A stretch of 64,000 bases of DNA from Desulfobacteraceae bacterium (GTDB taxonomy: Bacteria; Desulfobacterota; DSM-4660; Desulfatiglandales; Desulfatiglandaceae): positions 53,377 to 117,376 of the forward strand of contig JAUWMR010000005.1 in the NCBI GenBank assembly GCA_030613055.1. Direction: 5' to 3'. Both the position numbers and the translations under genes were made by a program. The notes beneath the pieces are model-generated. The model was given only the letters and a program-made list of their open reading frames with translations. It did not search any database and was not told the origin of the DNA. Below are positions 9,395 to 16,878 of the stretch, piece by piece; within the stretch, counting starts at the first letter, position 1; each line of letters begins with the position of its first letter.

Positions 9395-10366
9395 TTAAAA
9401 AGAAATCCCTATTTGCACGAATGGCCCATGAAAAAACTGGTCTGCGTTGTTGGTTCCAAAGCTGTTACCCAAAAAGAAACTCGGGTTGGTCTGTGTGTAA
9501 TTAATGTCTTTCCAGTGTTCGCAACGGTACCCGAGGACCACCGAGATATCTCCACCGGATGTCATCTTTCCGATGAAGGCCAGACCCAGTTCCCCTTCCG
9601 TGGAGTAAAAGGTGCGGGAGTCACTGTATAAGGCCTGGTCATAATAATTTGTACCTTCAATCCATTCATCCGTCACGCTCTCCGTTTTACCGAAAAGAAC
9701 AGCACCGCCTGCCGCACCCACCAAGTGCAGGCCGCTGTTAAAAATGGGCAGCTTGAAATTAAGGCCCAGCCGGGGACCGACGCCCCAGGTGTCCACGTTT
9801 CTTCTCTCATTAAAGACATAGGCAAAATACTGAAAGGCCGTGTTGACCTCCTGATTGAAATCCGCATAACGCACGCCCGCGGAAAGGCGTATATCCGACC
9901 CGCCTAACTTGAAGGTGTGTCCGGCCTCAAAATCAATCACCTGGTAAGAGGTCTCCACTTCGGCTGTAGCAGCATTCCAATAATAGCGGTAATTTTTGGA
10001 AAGGAGGTTTAGGGGCCACGGGCTTCCGGTGTAATATGATAACAGGTATGAGTCTTCACCTTTTGATTTGAGGCCGCTGTAGCTTGCAAAGATATCAAAG
10101 GTTTCGGTGAATTGTATGCCGAGCCCGGCCTTGCCGGTCCAGGTATAATCCGGCTCAATTTCGAGGGTACCGGCGCTGTTTCCGTTCCAATCCATTAATT
10201 CCGCATAAGTCTGCGCCTCTCTGTTCATAAAGAGATACCGCCCCTCCACTACCAGTTTAAACCGCTTGGAAAATTTCTCATTCGCAAAGACAAAGGTGGG
10301 TTTGGCGACAGCTAACGCTATTATGATCAACGAGGTAATACCGAATCGCTTTATTAATGAAGCCAT
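9395..10366 (-). CDS. Outer-membrane beta-barrel protein (Legionella MOMP-like)
   Basis: 323 residues. Signal peptide at the N-terminus (hydrophobic IIIALAVAKPTFVFA), then alternating aromatic/hydrophobic strands through the whole length, ending in GPFVQIGISF with the terminal Phe typical of BAM-assembled barrels. The spacing of YNRE/DY-rich loops and phrases such as DFEAGHTFKLGGSDIRLSAGVRYADF resemble the Lpg1974/MOMP-like group common in anaerobic proteobacteria. It is probably a porin or structural barrel in the outer membrane. It is convergent with the sulfotransferase gene. AAGGAAGG lies ~8 nt before the start. Substrate specificity is unknown. Confidence 0.75.
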   Translation of the reverse strand: MASLIKRFGITSLIIIALAVAKPTFVFANEKFSKRFKLVVEGRYLFMNREAQTYAELMDWNGNSAGTLEIEPDYTWTGKAGLGIQFTETFDIFASYSGLKSKGEDSYLLSYYTGSPWPLNLLSKNYRYYWNAATAEVETSYQVIDFEAGHTFKLGGSDIRLSAGVRYADFNQEVNTAFQYFAYVFNERRNVDTWGVGPRLGLNFKLPIFNSGLHLVGAAGGAVLFGKTESVTDEWIEGTNYYDQALYSDSRTFYSTEGELGLAFIGKMTSGGDISVVLGYRCEHWKDINYTQTNPSFFLGNSFGTNNADQFFHGPFVQIGISF

Positions 10367-12230: not shown

Positions 12231-13655
12231 ATGGAACCAACTCACCAAATAGCGCGATCAGAAGGAAGGCAATTCCGATTAGTTAAATTTTTTGCCTACG
12301 CGAGCTTCTTAGTGCTTCTCATATTTAGTTTTCCGTTCTCAGTTGTTATCTCCCAGAACGCGAAAGACACCCTGATGAGAAATTATGAGAACTATGCCCT
12401 TCTGTTAGGCGAAAACCTGAACCATCAGGTCTACCACGGTTTTGTAGTACCGATCACCGAGCAGTTCGGTGGAATAAAGCTAAGAGACCCGTATCAATAT
12501 AATAGAATGGATCGAATCGTAAGAAACACGATTCACAGTTTTAAGATAGACCTGGTCAACATCCATGCTATCGGCCAGGGGGTCATCGCCTACAGCACCG
12601 ATCCCACGCTTCTGGGAAAAAAGGCGACTGCAACCGCGGGATATACAAGGGCGACAAAGGGCGAACATTCTTCAAGATTAGTCTCTGGAAAAGATGACCT
12701 CTGGGGGTTTGGAGAAAAAATACGTGGAGAGAAGAAGCTCAGGACCTATATACCTTTCAGATGGCAAGATCCTCTTACAGGTGCCCAGGGTAAGGTGGGA
12801 GGCGTATTTGAACTGATCCAGGATCTGACCCAGGAATACCAGTCCATCACCAGATTTCAGTATCTGGTGTTTGCCCTTTCCATCCTCATCATGGGGTTGA
12901 TATTCGTCGCCCTTCTTGTGATTGTCCACAAGGCTGAAAGCATCATAGAGGAAAGGGCAAGAGAACAAATGGAACTTGAATCTCAATTGAACCACGCGGA
13001 ACGCTTAGCAGCCTTAGGTCAAATGGTTGCGGGCGTTTCCCATGAGATCAGAAATCCCTTGGGGATCATTCGAAGCACGGCAGAGCTTTTAGGCGGGATG
13101 CATGATTCCGATGAGGCACACAACAGGCTTTCCGCCGTGATTATTGAGGAATCAAGCCGGCTTGATAACATTGTCACGGAATTTTTAGATTTTGCCCGTC
13201 CTTTAAAGCCCAATTTTCAAGATTGTCAGTTAGAAGAAATCATCCATAAAAACCTTCTTTTCTTGCAGCCAGAGCTGGAAAAGGAGAATATTTCGGTGCA
13301 CGATAATTTAAACGGAAAAAAATTTAAAATTAAGGCGGACCCTCAGCTGCTGTACAGGGCTTTTCTAAACATCTTTCTCAATGCCATTCAATCCGGGTTA
13401 AATGGCGGTGCACTGACAGTCAGTATTTCGTATGAAAGGGGCCATTACGTCGTAAGCATTGAAGATACAGGAGGCGGCATCAGCGAGGAAAACCTGAGCA
13501 AGATCTTTAACCCCTTTTTCAGCAGCAAAGAAAAGGGGAGCGGCCTCGGTCTCCCCATAGTCAGAAATATTATCGAAGGGCACAGGGGAACCATATGGAT
13601 AGAGAGCAAGGAAGGTTCAGGAACAAAGGTTTTTGTTAAACTGCCCAGGGGATAG
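12231..13655 (+). CDS. Membrane sensor histidine kinase of an NtrC-type pair
   Basis: 474 residues. Two membrane segments (about residues 20-42 and 207-230) flank a ~160-residue periplasmic sensor region, probably a Cache/PAS-like fold. Then come a dimerisation/phosphoacceptor helix with SHEIRNPLG (His ~271) and a HATPase domain with N-box NIFLNAIQS, G1 DTGGGIS, F-box NPFFSSKEKGSGLGL and G2. The layout matches the ZraS/AtoS group that pairs with sigma54 activators. The response-regulator gene starts 43 nt downstream, so they form one operon. The signal sensed is unknown. No clear ribosome site is seen before ATG 12231. Confidence 0.9.
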   Translation: MEPTHQIARSEGRQFRLVKFFAYASFLVLLIFSFPFSVVISQNAKDTLMRNYENYALLLGENLNHQVYHGFVVPITEQFGGIKLRDPYQYNRMDRIVRNTIHSFKIDLVNIHAIGQGVIAYSTDPTLLGKKATATAGYTRATKGEHSSRLVSGKDDLWGFGEKIRGEKKLRTYIPFRWQDPLTGAQGKVGGVFELIQDLTQEYQSITRFQYLVFALSILIMGLIFVALLVIVHKAESIIEERAREQMELESQLNHAERLAALGQMVAGVSHEIRNPLGIIRSTAELLGGMHDSDEAHNRLSAVIIEESSRLDNIVTEFLDFARPLKPNFQDCQLEEIIHKNLLFLQPELEKENISVHDNLNGKKFKIKADPQLLYRAFLNIFLNAIQSGLNGGALTVSISYERGHYVVSIEDTGGGISEENLSKIFNPFFSSKEKGSGLGLPIVRNIIEGHRGTIWIESKEGSGTKVFVKLPRG

Positions 13656-13698: not shown

Positions 13699-15063
13699 AT
13701 GGAAACGATCCTGATTGTAGATGATGAAAAAAATTACCTGGTTGTGCTTGAGGCCCTGCTTGGGCCGGAAGGATATGAGATTATCACTGCCGATAATGCG
13801 CGTAATGCCCTCCGCCTTGCACGTGAATCGGATGTGGACCTTATCATCACAGACATGAAGATGCCGGGTATGAACGGTATGGAACTTTTGGAAGAATGCC
13901 AAAAAATAAAGCCAGAGCTTCCGGTCATCATGATGACAGCCTTTGGCACGATTGAAATGGCCGTGGAGGCCATGAAAAATAATGCCTATGATTACATCAC
14001 CAAGCCCTTCCAGAACGAACAACTCAAGCTGACGGTCAAAAAGGCGCTTGAGAACTATCGCCTGATCAAAGAAAACAGGTTCCTGAGCGAGGCCCTTTCG
14101 GATCGTTTTAAATTCGGCAATATTATTGGCAAGAGCAAGCCTATGCTCAAGGTCTACGATCTGATCAGAAAAGTTGCTCAATCAAAGGCATCTGTGCTGA
14201 TCACCGGTCCTTCAGGCACAGGTAAAGAACTTATTGCCAAGGCCATCCATTACAACAGCCCGCGGAAGGATCGCCAGTTTGTGTCCATAAATTGCGGCGC
14301 ATTGACAGAGACCCTGCTGGAAAGCGAGCTGTTTGGTCATGAAAAGGGTGCGTTTACAGGGGCCGTGGCCATGAAGAAGGGGCGTTTTGAACTTGCGGAT
14401 AACGGTACGCTTTTCCTGGATGAAGTGGGGGACATGCCGCTCTCCCTTCAGATTAAGCTTCTCAGAGTATTGCAAGAAATGGAATTCGAGCGGGTGGGCG
14501 GGACCAAGACGATAAAGGTGGATGTCCGTATTCTTTCCGCCTCCAATAGGAATATCAAGGAAGATATCGCCAAAGATGTGTTTCGTGAAGACCTTTTTTA
14601 CCGGCTCAATGTCATGGACATTGAGGTGCCGCCCCTAAATGAGCGGGTTGACGATATTCCTTTACTTGTTAAACATTTCATTGAAAAGTACAGCGATGGC
14701 AAGGACAAAGACAATATCGAGTTAGCGCCTGAAGCGTGGAAGGCCCTTTATAGTTATTCATGGCCTGGCAACGTGAGGGAACTGGAAAACGTCATTGAAA
14801 GGGCTATTGTACTCAATTCAGGGGAAAAAATCACACTTGATGATTTGCCTGAAGAACTGACAGGTGAAAAAGCTGAATTGGACGTGGATGGGTTTATCCC
14901 GCTAAATATTTCTCTGCCTAAAGCACTGGAGCAGATTGAGGAAAAACTGATTAGAAGGGCGCTGGCTCAATGCAACAATGTCCAGTCACATGCTGCAAAT
15001 ATGTTGGGAATCAAAAAAAACCTGATCCAACACAAAATGAAAAAATATGACATTGTGGCCTAA
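13699..15063 (+). CDS. NtrC-family sigma54-dependent response regulator
   Basis: 454 residues in three domains. The receiver domain has D8/D9 in the acidic pocket, phosphoacceptor Asp52 in ITDMKMPG, and a conserved Lys in YITKPF. The AAA+ domain has Walker A GPSGTGKE (about residues 169-176), the sigma54-contacting loop GAFTGA (217-222), Walker B GTLFLDEVG and the arginine-finger region. The C-terminal Fis-type helix-turn-helix ends in MLGIKKNLIQHKMKKY. It is therefore a full enhancer-binding protein activated by the upstream kinase. Its stop codon is 2 bp from the first of several GTACAA-type palindromes that precede two sigma54 promoters, so it is the obvious candidate activator of the small RNA cassettes downstream (inference). 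Confidence 0.95.
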   Translation: METILIVDDEKNYLVVLEALLGPEGYEIITADNARNALRLARESDVDLIITDMKMPGMNGMELLEECQKIKPELPVIMMTAFGTIEMAVEAMKNNAYDYITKPFQNEQLKLTVKKALENYRLIKENRFLSEALSDRFKFGNIIGKSKPMLKVYDLIRKVAQSKASVLITGPSGTGKELIAKAIHYNSPRKDRQFVSINCGALTETLLESELFGHEKGAFTGAVAMKKGRFELADNGTLFLDEVGDMPLSLQIKLLRVLQEMEFERVGGTKTIKVDVRILSASNRNIKEDIAKDVFREDLFYRLNVMDIEVPPLNERVDDIPLLVKHFIEKYSDGKDKDNIELAPEAWKALYSYSWPGNVRELENVIERAIVLNSGEKITLDDLPEELTGEKAELDVDGFIPLNISLPKALEQIEEKLIRRALAQCNNVQSHAANMLGIKKNLIQHKMKKYDIVA

Positions 15064-15065
15064 AA

Positions 15066-15219
15066 GTACAATATTTTGTATCTGCAATTTGTTAATAATT
15101 TAAACAGGTTATGCAATACGGCCTCAACCTGGCGATTTCCCGGTACAATATTTTGTACCTGCAATTTGTTAATAATTTAAACAGGTTATGCAATGCGGCC
15201 TCAACTTGGCGATTTCCCG
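15066..15219 (+). repeat. Two tandem 77-bp direct repeats, each starting with a GTACAA palindrome
   Basis: Units 15066-15142 and 15143-15219 differ at only 3 positions. Each begins with GTACAATATTTTGTAC (the first ends in T). A third palindrome begins exactly where a third unit would start (15220), but the sequence after it is different. Confidence 0.92.
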
Positions 15220-15235
15220 GTACAATATTTTGTAC
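15066..15235 (+). promoter_or_regulatory. Array of three enhancer-like palindromes, 77 bp apart
   Basis: GTACAATATTTTGTA(C/T) at 15066, 15143 and 15220, with arms GTACAA/TTGTAC around TATT. The third lies ~116 bp upstream of the -24 element at 15335, a normal distance for sigma54 upstream activator sites. The adjacent gene encodes an NtrC-type DNA-binding activator. Binding is inferred from position and symmetry. Confidence 0.7.
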
Positions 15236-15334
15236 TTTTGTGAATATCCCGCAACAGACAAAAAAAGCCATGCAATTTAAAAAATCGACTATAAACAATT
15301 GGTTATATGATATTTCCAAAAAAATGCCCTCTTT

Positions 15335-15350
15335 TGGCAAGCATATTGCA
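15335..15350 (+). promoter_or_regulatory. Sigma54 (-24/-12) promoter, cassette 1
   Basis: TGGCAAGCATATTGCA fits the consensus TGGCAC-N5-TTGCW at all key bases: GG and GC are separated by exactly 10 bp, and the only deviation is C to A at position 6. The predicted start of transcription, 12 nt after the -12 C, is A at ~15361. Confidence 0.82.
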
Positions 15351-15360
15351 TTATCTATAA

Positions 15361-15424
15361 AGTAACAAAAAAATTACTCTTTCCTCCTAACAAAATAACC
15401 GCCAAGCAGGCGGTTGTTTTTTTT
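15361..15424 (+). ncRNA. Predicted sigma54-dependent small RNA, copy 1 (~64 nt)
   Basis: The predicted transcript begins AGUAAC, forms a 5' hairpin (AGUAA / UUACU around an A-rich loop), leaves CUUUCCUCCUAACAAAAU unpaired and ends in an intrinsic terminator hairpin with eight U. The unpaired stretch contains CCUCCU, a perfect anti-Shine-Dalgarno sequence, typical of sRNAs that block ribosome binding. It holds no open reading frame. A second copy at 15924 is nearly invariant within the RNA while its upstream flank has diverged more, which argues that the RNA itself is under selection. Evidence is promoter, terminator and duplication only; no expression data. Confidence 0.68.
15397..15424 (+). 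terminator. Intrinsic terminator, cassette 1
   Basis: AACCGCC, loop AAGCA, GGCGGTT, one G, then eight T. A 7-bp GC-rich stem. Confidence 0.9.
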
Positions 15425-15427
15425 ATG

Positions 15428-15535
15428 CTACCAATAATCCCGCCGCCTCAACTCCATGGTATCTATGAAACAGTCCTTTTTCCCCTTCCAATACGGACAG
15501 GATAGCGTTGCGGCTGGAGAGTTTTCCAACGCCAT
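15428..15535 (-). CDS. Possible 35-aa peptide or remnant of an era-like 3' end
   Basis: A short minus-strand frame (ATG at 15535) ends in ...IDTMELRRRDYW. Era, convergent with cassette 2, ends in ...RDTRALRRLGY. Both lie directly after the terminator of their cassette, and the two DNA stretches share short blocks (TACC, GGTATCT). So the duplicated unit may include a decayed era tail, or this may be a real two-Cys peptide. No Shine-Dalgarno sequence lies at good distance. Low confidence. Confidence 0.25.
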   Translation of the reverse strand: MALENSPAATLSCPYWKGKKDCFIDTMELRRRDYW

Positions 15536-15783
15536 GTCGGGTCGGCGTTGATCCCCCTGTTATTATATCTGAACAAAACAGTAAAAAGATCTAACAAATA
15601 ATTTTATTGTAATAACAGTAAATTTGCCCCACAACCTTTAGAAAATTTACGATTCTGTTAAAAAAATTTAACAATACTTGCGTTGATATTTGGGAAGGCA
15701 ATTTCTGCTGAAAAATAATATGTCGGGAATTTCAATAAGATAGAGCATCATACGTTATGCAGACTTAACCGCTTGTTTTCCCG

Positions 15784-15799
15784 GTACAATATTTTGTAC
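15784..15799 (+). promoter_or_regulatory. Fourth GTACAA palindrome, cassette 2
   Basis: GTACAATATTTTGTAC, identical to the site at 15220 and 115 bp upstream of the second -24 element. Only one copy is present here, against three for cassette 1, so the two promoters may differ in strength or sensitivity. Confidence 0.7.
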
Positions 15800-15897
15800 T
15801 TTTGTAAATATCCTGCAACAGACAAAAAAGCCATGCAATTTAAAAAATCAATTATAAACAATTGGTTATATGATATATCCAAAAAAATACCCTCTTT

Positions 15898-15913
15898 TGG
15901 CAAGCATATTGCA
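15898..15913 (+). promoter_or_regulatory. Sigma54 (-24/-12) promoter, cassette 2
   Basis: TGGCAAGCATATTGCA, identical to the promoter at 15335. Predicted transcription start is A at ~15924. Confidence 0.82.
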
Positions 15914-15923
15914 ATATCCATAA

Positions 15924-15984
15924 AGTAACAAAAAAATTACTCTTTCCTCCTAATAAAATAACCGCCAAGCAGGCGGTTGTTTTT
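15924..15984 (+). ncRNA. Predicted sigma54-dependent small RNA, copy 2 (~61 nt)
   Basis: Same structure as copy 1: 5' AGUAA/UUACU hairpin, exposed CUUUCCUCCUAA and a terminator hairpin. One base differs in the single-stranded part (C to U after CCUCCUAA), and the U tail is shorter. It is convergent with era, whose stop codon is ~10 bp beyond the U tail, so the hairpin may also lie in the era 3' UTR. Confidence 0.68.
15960..15984 (+). terminator. Intrinsic terminator, cassette 2
   Basis: AACCGCC, loop AAGCA, GGCGGTT, G, five T. The stem is identical to that of cassette 1. Confidence 0.88.
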
Positions 15985-15993
15985 ATTGTACCA

Positions 15994-16878
15994 TCAGTAA
16001 CCCAGACGCCGGAGAGCCCTGGTATCTCTGGTCCAGTTTTTTTCCACCCTCACCGCAAGGTCCAGATAGACCCGCACGCCGAATATCTTTTCCAGGTCCT
16101 GCCTTGCCAGGCGTCCAATAGTCTTGATCATCATTCCTTTATGTCCGATAAGTATTCCTTTCTGGGACTCTGTCTCCACATGGATCCGGGCGTCAATGCT
16201 AAGAAGGTCTCTGGCCATTATTTCCTCCATGTTTTCTACAGTAACAGCGCACGAATATGGCAATTCCTTTCTTGTCAGGCGATAGATCTTTTCCCGTATG
16301 ACTTCAGACGTTAGGGCTGATTCTGACTGGTCCGTGCTCATATTATCAGGGAAAAACTGAGGTCCGGGCCTAAGGTTCGACTTTAATTCATCTAAAAGCA
16401 TGTCCACCCCGTCACCCGTGAGAGCGGAAATAGCGACAATTGCAGTGAATGGATAGAGTCGCCTGTACTCATCAATAATCTTTAACAGCTGTTCCTTCCG
16501 ACCCATATCAATCTTGTTAATAACCAGGATGCAGTTTGTCGTTGTTCCCTTAAGATTTCTCAAGGCCATCGAAATACCAGGATCATCCGGGCGGTTCATC
16601 TCGATCATAAAAAGCAAAATATCCACTTCACAAAAAGCAGCAAGTGCAGATGCTACCATGCTCTTATGGAGGGCGGTTCTGGTTTTATGGATACCCGGCG
16701 TATCCATGAATACCATTTGATAGCCATCTCCATGAAGGATGCCAAGCATGCGGTTTCGGGTGGTTTGCGGCTTAGGGGAAACAATCGCAAGTTTCGTTCC
16801 TAAAATTCTATTTAAAAGCGTGGATTTTCCTACGTTTGGAGGGCCTATTATTGCAATAAAACCGGATCGAAAACTCAT
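15994..16878 (-). CDS. era: GTPase Era (ribosome assembly)
   Basis: 294 residues from the chosen ATG at 16878, the usual Era length. G1 GPPNVGKST, G3 DTPGIH, G4 NKID and the C-terminal KH domain with GHKGMMIKTIGRLARQDLEKIFG are all present. Era binds the 3' end of 16S rRNA during 30S maturation, close to the membrane. The frame is open to 17052, but the extra 58 residues are unlike Era, and a GGGGAG site precedes ATG 16878. It ends in LRRLGY, shorter than some homologues. It is convergent with the second small-RNA cassette; rnc, often its operon partner, lies 1.6 kb away on the same strand. Confidence 0.95.
   Translation of the reverse strand: MSFRSGFIAIIGPPNVGKSTLLNRILGTKLAIVSPKPQTTRNRMLGILHGDGYQMVFMDTPGIHKTRTALHKSMVASALAAFCEVDILLFMIEMNRPDDPGISMALRNLKGTTTNCILVINKIDMGRKEQLLKIIDEYRRLYPFTAIVAISALTGDGVDMLLDELKSNLRPGPQFFPDNMSTDQSESALTSEVIREKIYRLTRKELPYSCAVTVENMEEIMARDLLSIDARIHVETESQKGILIGHKGMMIKTIGRLARQDLEKIFGVRVYLDLAVRVEKNWTRDTRALRRLGY

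What the first reader, a model, noticed from the sequence alone, without database searches (positions are those of the whole stretch)
15064..15990. Twin sigma54-controlled anti-SD small RNAs beside their NtrC-type activator
Two cassettes share a palindromic GTACAATATTTTGTAC site, a -24/-12 promoter (TGGCAAGCATATTGCA) with exact 10-bp GG-GC spacing, and a predicted ~61-64 nt RNA with a 5' hairpin, an exposed CUUUCCUCCUAA and a strong intrinsic terminator. Seen: the sequences and duplication. Known: sigma54 promoters need an enhancer-binding protein such as the one encoded immediately upstream; Vibrio Qrr RNAs have a similar LuxO/sigma54 layout. Inferred: the sensor kinase-regulator pair switches on two RNAs that mask Shine-Dalgarno sites (complement TTAGGAGGAAAG).
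Basis: partly seen in the sequence, partly recalled or inferred. Interest (0 to 1): 0.93.

Follow-up and report, generated by a model that had tools for sequence, protein, structure and literature searches.

The report
Porin-silencing RNA pair under sigma-54
Two near-identical short RNA genes lie beside a sensor-regulator gene pair that likely switches them on, and each carries an 18-base core exactly complementary to the translation start of three outer-membrane porin genes of the same genome, so the RNAs are predicted to shut those porins off; the same gene set is conserved across related bacterial genera.

Summary
The window holds two cassettes (15335-15424 and 15898-15984, +), each with an upstream palindrome, a -24/-12 promoter and a 61-64 nt RNA ending in a terminator. 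Rfam has no such RNA, but a covariance model matches 56 of 61 related genomes. The RNA lies directly downstream of the same NtrC-type regulator in 52 of the 54 genomes that keep it (50 by the model, 2 by eye). A palindrome sits about 115 bp upstream of the promoter at a near-fixed distance.

"SD masking" becomes specific: the core ATTACTCTTTCCTCCTAA is perfectly complementary (18 nt) to the SD plus AU of AUG of three porin genes in this genome. Across 61 genomes, 15 of 16 readable genes with an exact site encode porin-like outer-membrane proteins. At up to one mismatch it is 34 of 63, against 0 of 16 with a permuted spacer. Cognate RNA-porin pairs bind better than shuffled ones. RpoN is present; Hfq was not found. 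Expression and repression are untested; a conserved 5' hairpin is not supported. Most likely: a two-component, sigma54-driven, apparently Hfq-independent porin-repressing sRNA family, new in sequence, known in kind.

The parts
12231..13655 (+). sensor histidine kinase with a predicted PAS/Cache-like periplasmic domain between two membrane helices (inferred from the model)
   Evidence: HisKA + HATPase_c; 31 homologues at 46-72% identity in loci that hold the RNA pattern; AF2 model with mean pLDDT 75, pTM 0.42; by fold the ZraS cytoplasmic domain ranks second and third after a WalK model
13699..15063 (+). NtrC-type response regulator / sigma54 enhancer-binding protein, likely activator of both RNAs
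   Evidence: Response_reg + Sigma54_activat + HTH_8; orthologue at E<=1e-150 in 54 of 61 genomes
15066..15081 (.). fourth, one-base variant of the palindromic site (GTACAATATTTTGTAT)
15143..15158 (.). palindromic site GTACAATATTTTGTAC, second upstream site of cassette 1 (-192 from TGG)
15220..15235 (.). palindromic site GTACAATATTTTGTAC, probable activator site of cassette 1 (-115 from TGG)
15335..15350 (+). -24/-12 (sigma54) promoter TGGCAAGCATATTGCA of RNA 1
   Evidence: same element ahead of homologues
15361..15424 (+). predicted small RNA 1 (64 nt)
15373..15390 (+). 18-nt core ATTACTCTTTCCTCCTAA of RNA 1, exact complement of three porin start regions
15392..15424 (+). intrinsic terminator of RNA 1
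15784..15799 (.). palindromic site GTACAATATTTTGTAC, probable activator site of cassette 2 (-114 from TGG)
15898..15913 (+). -24/-12 (sigma54) promoter TGGCAAGCATATTGCA of RNA 2
15924..15984 (+). predicted small RNA 2 (61 nt)
15936..15953 (+). 18-nt core of RNA 2, identical to that of RNA 1
15955..15984 (+). intrinsic terminator of RNA 2
15994..16872 (-). era GTPase gene, convergent neighbour; conserved landmark, not part of the circuit
   Evidence: NCBIfam GTPase Era above cut-off; convergent at the RNA in 50 of 96 cassettes examined

Best explanation
This is a pair of small-RNA genes likely transcribed by sigma54 polymerase under the NtrC-type regulator encoded next to them, and their RNAs are predicted to pair with the ribosome-binding site and start codon of outer-membrane porin mRNAs and would so block porin translation. 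Steps: (1) the membrane kinase senses an envelope or periplasmic signal (inferred; signal unknown); (2) it phosphorylates the regulator (inferred from family knowledge); (3) the regulator binds the palindrome about 115 bp upstream of each -24 element, probably helped by DNA bending (inferred from near-fixed position and co-conservation); (4) sigma54 transcription makes a ~61-64 nt RNA (predicted); (5) the conserved core ACUCUUU(C/U)CUCCU, with flanking AUU and AA, pairs with UUAGGAGGAAAGAGUAAU of the porin mRNA, covering SD, spacer and the AU of AUG (complementarity shown; pairing in the cell not); (6) porin synthesis falls (inferred). No Hfq was found in the genome, so the long continuous duplex may stand in for a chaperone (inferred).
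For: Promoter, palindrome, RNA fold. Homologues: model R1 matches 56 of 61 genomes at E<=1e-3; two of these (G043, and G042 on C12) are weak and lack the core. Linkage: regulator orthologue in 54 of 61; R1 match within 500 nt downstream on the same contig in 50 of these 54 (coordinates), plus 2 diverged copies seen by eye with palindrome and promoter (G042, G045). GTNCA-N6-TGNAC within 200 nt upstream in 43 of 54 regulator-adjacent cassettes, nearest site always at -112 to -117; of the other 11, 8 have GTTAA/GTTAC-type palindromes and 1 a one-base variant at about the same place. IHF-like site (consensus recalled) with <=1 mismatch in 33 of 54; 100 mononucleotide shuffles: mean 8.4, maximum 14. 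Targets: three own porins with 18 nt perfect complementarity; all 6 start-codon sites of the own genome with <=1 mismatch precede outer-membrane-protein genes (one is read for only 7 residues before the contig ends). In 61 genomes 17 exact non-self sites; 15 of 16 readable ORFs porin-like, 1 CstA. At <=1 mismatch 34 of 63 ORFs of >=100 aa are OMP-like; permuted-spacer control at <=1 mismatch: 0 of 16 such ORFs in the 30 of 50 sites read (Fisher p 3e-5). Own porin: model with about 16 long strands matching DcaP/OmpF-type porins. Cognate duplexes stronger than shuffled partners: -27.3 against -26.1 kcal/mol, 9 of 5000 shuffles as good. The base before ACUC pairs with its partner in the target in 21 of 22 scorable cases (T-A 17, C-G 2, A-T 1, T-G 1; misfit C-T 1). 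Independent case: a Desulfoferrobacter suflitae RNA, 21 nt perfect to a secreted porin-resembling start. RpoN present.
Against: No transcript, binding or repression data. Hfq not found, unlike the well-studied porin-repressing sRNAs of enterobacteria (recalled). At exactly 1 mismatch the picture is mixed: 19 OMP-like against 28 other ORFs >=100 aa. G040 and G012 have such sites before OMP genes though neither RNA nor regulator was found there. Genomes with the U variant of the core (CUUUUCUCC) keep G in the target, a wobble rather than a compensation. In the pairing table 10 of 32 pairs could not be scored by the regex, and G051 among them is a misfit by eye. The shuffle test ignores relatedness. 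G055 has the regulator away from its RNA. Two of the 15 porin-like calls (L230, L305) have no family match and rest on resemblance; several others match only weakly.
Confidence: 0.8

Rival explanations
1. The RNA is a general translation damper: a mimic of the 16S anti-SD that masks any strong AGGAGG, not a porin-specific regulator.
For: The core contains CCUCCU; 28 of 47 ORFs >=100 aa at one-mismatch sites are not OMP-like; CstA in G048 has an exact site; HU-like genes have related sites in two Syntrophobacteraceae-like genomes.
Against: Conservation reaches beyond CCUCCU over CUCUUU and partly AUUA (on loci chosen with a core regex), which pair with the spacer and AU of AUG; letter order differs from the rRNA tail (recalled CCUCCUUUC); exact sites are few per genome and 15 of 16 porin-like; the permuted spacer gives none in the sites read.
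Confidence: 0.1
2. AGGAGGAAAGAG is simply the favourite SD of very highly expressed genes, porins among them, and the match to the RNA is incidental.
For: Porins are usually abundant (recalled); G040 and G012 carry such sites without a detected RNA.
Against: 18-nt exactness in three (paralogous) genes of one genome; cognate pairing better than shuffled; the AUCACUC form of the RNA in G014/G032 goes with GAGUGAU in their porin; the D. suflitae match runs 21 nt into the leader.
Confidence: 0.07
3. The conserved block is a DNA or terminator element between convergent genes (shared terminator with era), not a separately made RNA.
For: Convergent era in 50 of 96 cassettes; the hairpin could end transcription from both sides (inferred).
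Against: A -24/-12 element, a near-fixed palindrome and an unpaired conserved core have no role in a terminator; the first of two tandem cassettes and the Syntrophobacteraceae-type copies are not next to era.
Confidence: 0.03

Closest known systems
Qrr RNAs of Vibrio (LuxO, sigma54)
   Same: Short RNAs with sigma54 promoters under an NtrC-family regulator (PMC10162802, abstract read, for Qrr1, LuxO and SypG); Qrr1-5 as sets (abstract starts in the listing).
   Different: No Rfam match; regulator scores 392.5 against the LuxO cut-off of 800; predicted targets are porins, not quorum regulators; no Hfq found.
ChvR of Caulobacter (ChvGI two-component system)
   Different: Different sequence and host; the activator here is NtrC-type with a sigma54 promoter, encoded immediately upstream; the continuous complementarity is 18 nt and lies on SD plus start codon.
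sigma54-dependent ncRNAs of Desulfovibrio vulgaris (downstream of DVU0679 = Dv_sRNA2, and of DVU0653)
   Same: NtrC-family response regulator whose mapped target is an ncRNA just downstream of its own gene (PMC3333781, section 21 and passages; PMC4641369, passages).
   Different: Function of Dv_sRNA2 unknown there; RNA sequences are not in the passages that I read; orthologues of DVU0653 are said to be limited to a few Desulfovibrio species. Homology with the present RNA was not tested.
QseEF-GlmY
   Same: sRNA gene adjacent to its own two-component pair (PMC8745638, start of the abstract in the listing: glmY-qseE-qseG-qseF operon, QseF sites at glmY).
   Different: GlmY acts on glmS via an adaptor (recalled), not by masking porin starts; no such family in the Rfam scans.

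Membership tests
sigma54-dependent small RNA | -24/-12 promoter with GG-N10-GC spacing | tested here: met
sigma54-dependent small RNA | genome encodes RpoN | tested here: met
   PF04552, 210 bits, E 3.6e-62
sigma54-dependent small RNA | enhancer-binding protein and its upstream site | tested here: met
   regulator domains; palindrome at a near-fixed place, 43 of 54 plus variants. Binding itself not testable
sigma54-dependent small RNA | a transcript that depends on RpoN | not testable with these tools
   no expression data
Qrr family | match to a Qrr covariance model | tested here: not met
   no Rfam family at gathering score; none of the 19 sub-threshold matches is Qrr
Qrr family | control by a LuxO orthologue | tested here: not met
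   LuxO equivalog 392.5 bits, cut-off 800; the AtoC model scores higher, 510.8, also below its cut-off of 714
porin-repressing sRNA | complementarity over the translation start of OMP mRNAs, conserved across species | tested here: met
porin-repressing sRNA | repression of the target by base pairing | not testable with these tools
   needs compensatory mutants
Hfq-dependent sRNA | Hfq present | tested here: not met
   PF17209 not found in the own genome (95.6% complete) while 5 of 14 control genomes rang
Dv_sRNA2 / DVU0653 ncRNA of D. vulgaris | sequence homology of RNA and regulator | not tested
   their sequences were not obtained; only passages of papers read

The most novel reading that the evidence does not exclude
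A phylum-wide, Hfq-free envelope circuit built on one frozen seed: short RNAs with the core CUCUUU(C/U)CUCCU keep masking porin start sites while everything around the seed is replaced - the porin family, the activator's DNA site, and in other clades even the promoter class (sigma54 with no neighbouring regulator homologue in Syntrophobacteraceae, PHO-box-like plus sigma70-like elements in another family) - so that the seed, not the gene, is the conserved unit.
Probability: 0.4. Interest if true: 0.85.

Novelty: new variant of a known kind. Interest (0 to 1): 0.74.

Why it matters
Little is in print on small RNAs of these bacteria: my searches turned up sigma54-driven ncRNAs of D. vulgaris with no known targets in the passages read and a computational ncRNA catalogue of Oleidesulfovibrio (PMC11124144, listing only). 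Here a conserved RNA family comes with its kinase, activator, operator, promoter and a concrete target class, so a full circuit can be tested with a handful of mutants. It offers a case of translational porin control by long RNA pairing without an identifiable Hfq, and a natural experiment on how an RNA seed and its targets evolve together across many genera (38 of the 40 sampled have a model match).

Tried and rejected
Rfam scan at gathering and at permissive thresholds: nothing. Conserved 5' hairpin: dropped after RNAalifold on 55 homologues. Reading the core's reverse strand as an SD of a small gene: no conserved start codon seen by eye (sequences). Other regulon members with the exact palindrome: none in the own genome at <=1 mismatch; a degenerate palindrome search was not run. 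The Legionella_OMP-like gene of the window (9398-10366, -) lacks the target site. C95:2911 carries a promoter-like TGGCAAGAATATTGCA ahead of a coding gene, not an RNA. Weak model hits (26-35 bits) are partly terminators alone or the antisense of porin starts (own C75, C84, C94, C81), so the phylum count (86 of 395 at E<=0.01) overstates the family; matches above 45 bits are in 19 genomes, all of the same order or of family f94 (my count, which used stricter filters). The 96 cassettes come, the window, and loci L045-L124 with duplicates removed; L125-L162 were used only for the kinase. The pattern fixes promoter and core, so those features were judged on loci found by BLAST or by the model; palindrome, regulator and era adjacency were never selected for. 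One search's column counts come from loci picked with a core regex and overstate core invariance: G016, G017, G042 and G045 deviate. Literature: nine searches, of which I saw listings and abstract starts and, for four papers, passages, a section or the abstract, showed no description of this RNA; the library holds open-licence papers only.

Full report
What is in the window. Downstream of a histidine kinase (12231-13655) and an NtrC-type regulator (13699-15063) lie two cassettes that are 87% identical over 225 nt. Each has the palindrome GTACAATATTTTGTAC, a perfect -24/-12 element (TGGCAAGCATATTGCA) and a predicted RNA of 64 or 61 nt ending in an intrinsic terminator. The palindrome occurs four times here (three exact, one with one change) and nowhere else in the genome at 0-1 mismatch. 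The promoter sequence is exact only at these two places. RpoN is encoded elsewhere. Rfam knows no such RNA.

Conservation. A blastn search with the cassette found homologues in many of 60 relatives (its weakest matches, up to E 1, are chance). Aligning 55 cassettes gave a covariance model that matches 56 of 61 genomes and 38 of 40 genera at E<=1e-3; two of the 56, G043 and the C12 hit of G042, are weak and lack the core. The regulator has an orthologue in 54 of 61 genomes. By the coordinates the RNA lies within 500 nt downstream of it in 50 of 54. In G042 and G045 a diverged copy with palindrome and promoter is there too. In G050 the contig ends; in G055 the RNA is elsewhere, beside era. The kinase, with 46-72% identity, was found in 31 RNA-bearing loci; in L087 no kinase was detected upstream although the flank is long enough. 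The convergent gene is era in 50 of 96 cassettes.

Operator. In 43 of 54 regulator-adjacent cassettes GTNCA-N6-TGNAC lies within 200 nt upstream, the nearest one always at -112 to -117 from TGG, some with a second site at about -192. Of the 11 others, L024, L036, L051, L079, L093, L104 and L105 carry GTTAA-type and L073 a GTTAC-type palindrome, and L032 a one-base variant, at about the same distance; L062 and L085 show none. A shift of the site at a near-fixed position is what a diverging DNA-binding domain would leave. Sites resembling the IHF consensus (recalled) lie between operator and promoter in 33 of 54 with at most one mismatch, against a mean of 8.4 and a maximum of 14 in 100 mononucleotide shuffles.

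RNA anatomy. The consensus structure has only the terminator stem, with compensatory changes in 11 of 13 pairs. The 5' leader is A-rich and variable, and the weak hairpin of the window copies is not general. The conserved part is single-stranded: ACTCTTT(C/T)CTCCTAA. It is near-invariant in loci found by BLAST or the model rather than by the pattern, with exceptions in G016, G017, G042 and G045.

Targets. In the own genome AGGAGGAAAGAG occurs at five places other than the RNA genes. Three of them read TTAGGAGGAAAGAGTAATG and begin paralogous porin genes: 18 nt of perfect Watson-Crick complementarity to the RNA (19 for RNA 2 with one of them), covering SD, spacer and AU of AUG. One other is an aroA-like start (by eye; 12 nt) and one lies inside a reading frame without a start there. 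A fourth porin-like start at a contig end (7 residues visible), a further porin and an OmpW-family gene carry weaker versions. The first porin is predicted as a signal peptide plus about 16 long strands and matches DcaP, Omp32 and OmpF-type porins; a 79% identical relative carries the Porin_4 domain.

In 61 genomes the pattern AGGAGRAAAGAGTNATG has 20 exact sites. Three are the reverse strand of RNA genes; of the other 17 one is too short to read. Fifteen of the remaining 16 encode exported porin-like proteins and one encodes CstA. The porin calls rest on Porin_4, LbtU-porin, KdgM, Porin_2 or OMP_b-brl matches, some below the curated cut-off, or on homology, and for L230 and L305 on resemblance alone. 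In the joint alignment of 30 target proteins 13 match Porin_4, and many are under 25% identical to the first. With the spacer permuted there were 3 exact sites and 50 in all; I read 30, of which 16 gave ORFs of 100 aa or more, none porin-like by eye. At exactly one mismatch the real pattern gives 19 OMP-like and 28 other ORFs of that length, plus two short porin fragments, so single-mismatch hits are not trustworthy one by one. Like for like, at up to one mismatch, it is 34 of 63 against 0 of 16 (Fisher p 3e-5).

Co-adaptation. For 32 RNA-porin pairs in 25 genomes the mean duplex energy is -27.3 kcal/mol; with RNAs shuffled among genomes it is -26.1 (sd 0.45), and 9 of 5000 shuffles reach the real value. 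Pairs from G040, G012 and G017 were left out because no RNA was extracted there. Relatedness is not corrected for. The base before ACUC and its partner in the target form a pair, wobble included, in 21 of 22 scorable cases, 17 of them T-A; 10 pairs did not fit the regex and were not scored, G051 among them a misfit by eye. In G014 and G032, two species of one genus, a C in the RNA goes with a G in the porin. In Desulfoferrobacter suflitae, whose RNAs belong to a second subfamily (alignment A2), one RNA is perfectly complementary over 21 nt to the start of a secreted 458-aa protein that resembles a porin but has no Pfam match; the two other RNAs of that genome that I compared match over 13 nt.

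Mechanism. The simplest account is a two-component, sigma54-driven RNA that blocks translation initiation of the major porins when the kinase is active. The kinase's best NCBIfam matches are AtoS and ZraS, both below cut-off, and ZraS also ranks high by fold. It has a predicted PAS/Cache-like periplasmic domain (moderate confidence; my reading of the secondary structure), so an envelope or ligand signal is likely but unknown. No Hfq was found. The Caulobacter RNA ChvR shows that a two-component-controlled, Hfq-independent RNA can silence an outer-membrane protein through long pairing (PMC6237742, passages).

Known or new. Desulfovibrio vulgaris has sigma54-dependent ncRNAs just downstream of their regulators (PMC3333781, PMC4641369; passages and one section read). 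Qrr and GlmY share the layout. None is shown to be homologous. The sequence family, its linkage and its porin targets did not turn up in nine searches, mostly seen as listings. I call it a new variant of a known kind.

Limits. All is sequence inference. The targets were found with patterns, not by whole-genome prediction. Many genomes are metagenome bins. Counts from neighbouring genomes are not independent.

Noticed in passing
L382-L394, L402 (position ~1501); L443, L444, L449, L450, L182, L186, L192: Second subfamily of sigma54 RNAs in Syntrophobacteraceae-like and other families: (A)ACTCTTTCCTCCTC or a close variant plus a terminator whose loop keeps GCCCC; several copies in some genomes, and no close homologue of the regulator just upstream in the fetched flanks of the loci.
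   Followed up: partly
L396, L397, L398, L399, L401, L403, L405, L407, L411 (position ~1501): Third class of RNA candidates with the same seed in Syntrophobacteraceae-like genomes, with sigma70-like promoters (TTGACT/TATAAT-type, by eye), a GGAAAG stretch that can fold onto CUUUCC, and a terminator loop rich in C and U.
   Followed up: no
L432, L433, L434, L436, L437, L184: In another family (f13) RNA candidates with the same seed lack -24/-12 and instead follow tandem TTTTAATCTT repeats resembling a PHO box (recalled) plus TATAGT-like elements.
   Followed up: no
L015, and L045 with L047: Duplicated RNA cassettes also occur in other genomes (G020 in tandem; Tobar14m-G14 on two contigs), so duplication recurs.
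   Followed up: no
window 9398-10366 (-): Legionella_OMP-family outer-membrane protein gene close to the circuit; its start lacks the target site.
   Followed up: partly
L395, L408: HU-like DNA-binding protein genes (by eye) with GAGGAGGAAAGAGTATG at the start in two Syntrophobacteraceae-like genomes, possible further targets of the second subfamily.
   Followed up: no
G000:C43:35559, C69:55812, C71:38607: A related palindrome GCACAATATTTTGTGC occurs three times elsewhere in the genome, perhaps the site of a different regulator.
   Followed up: no
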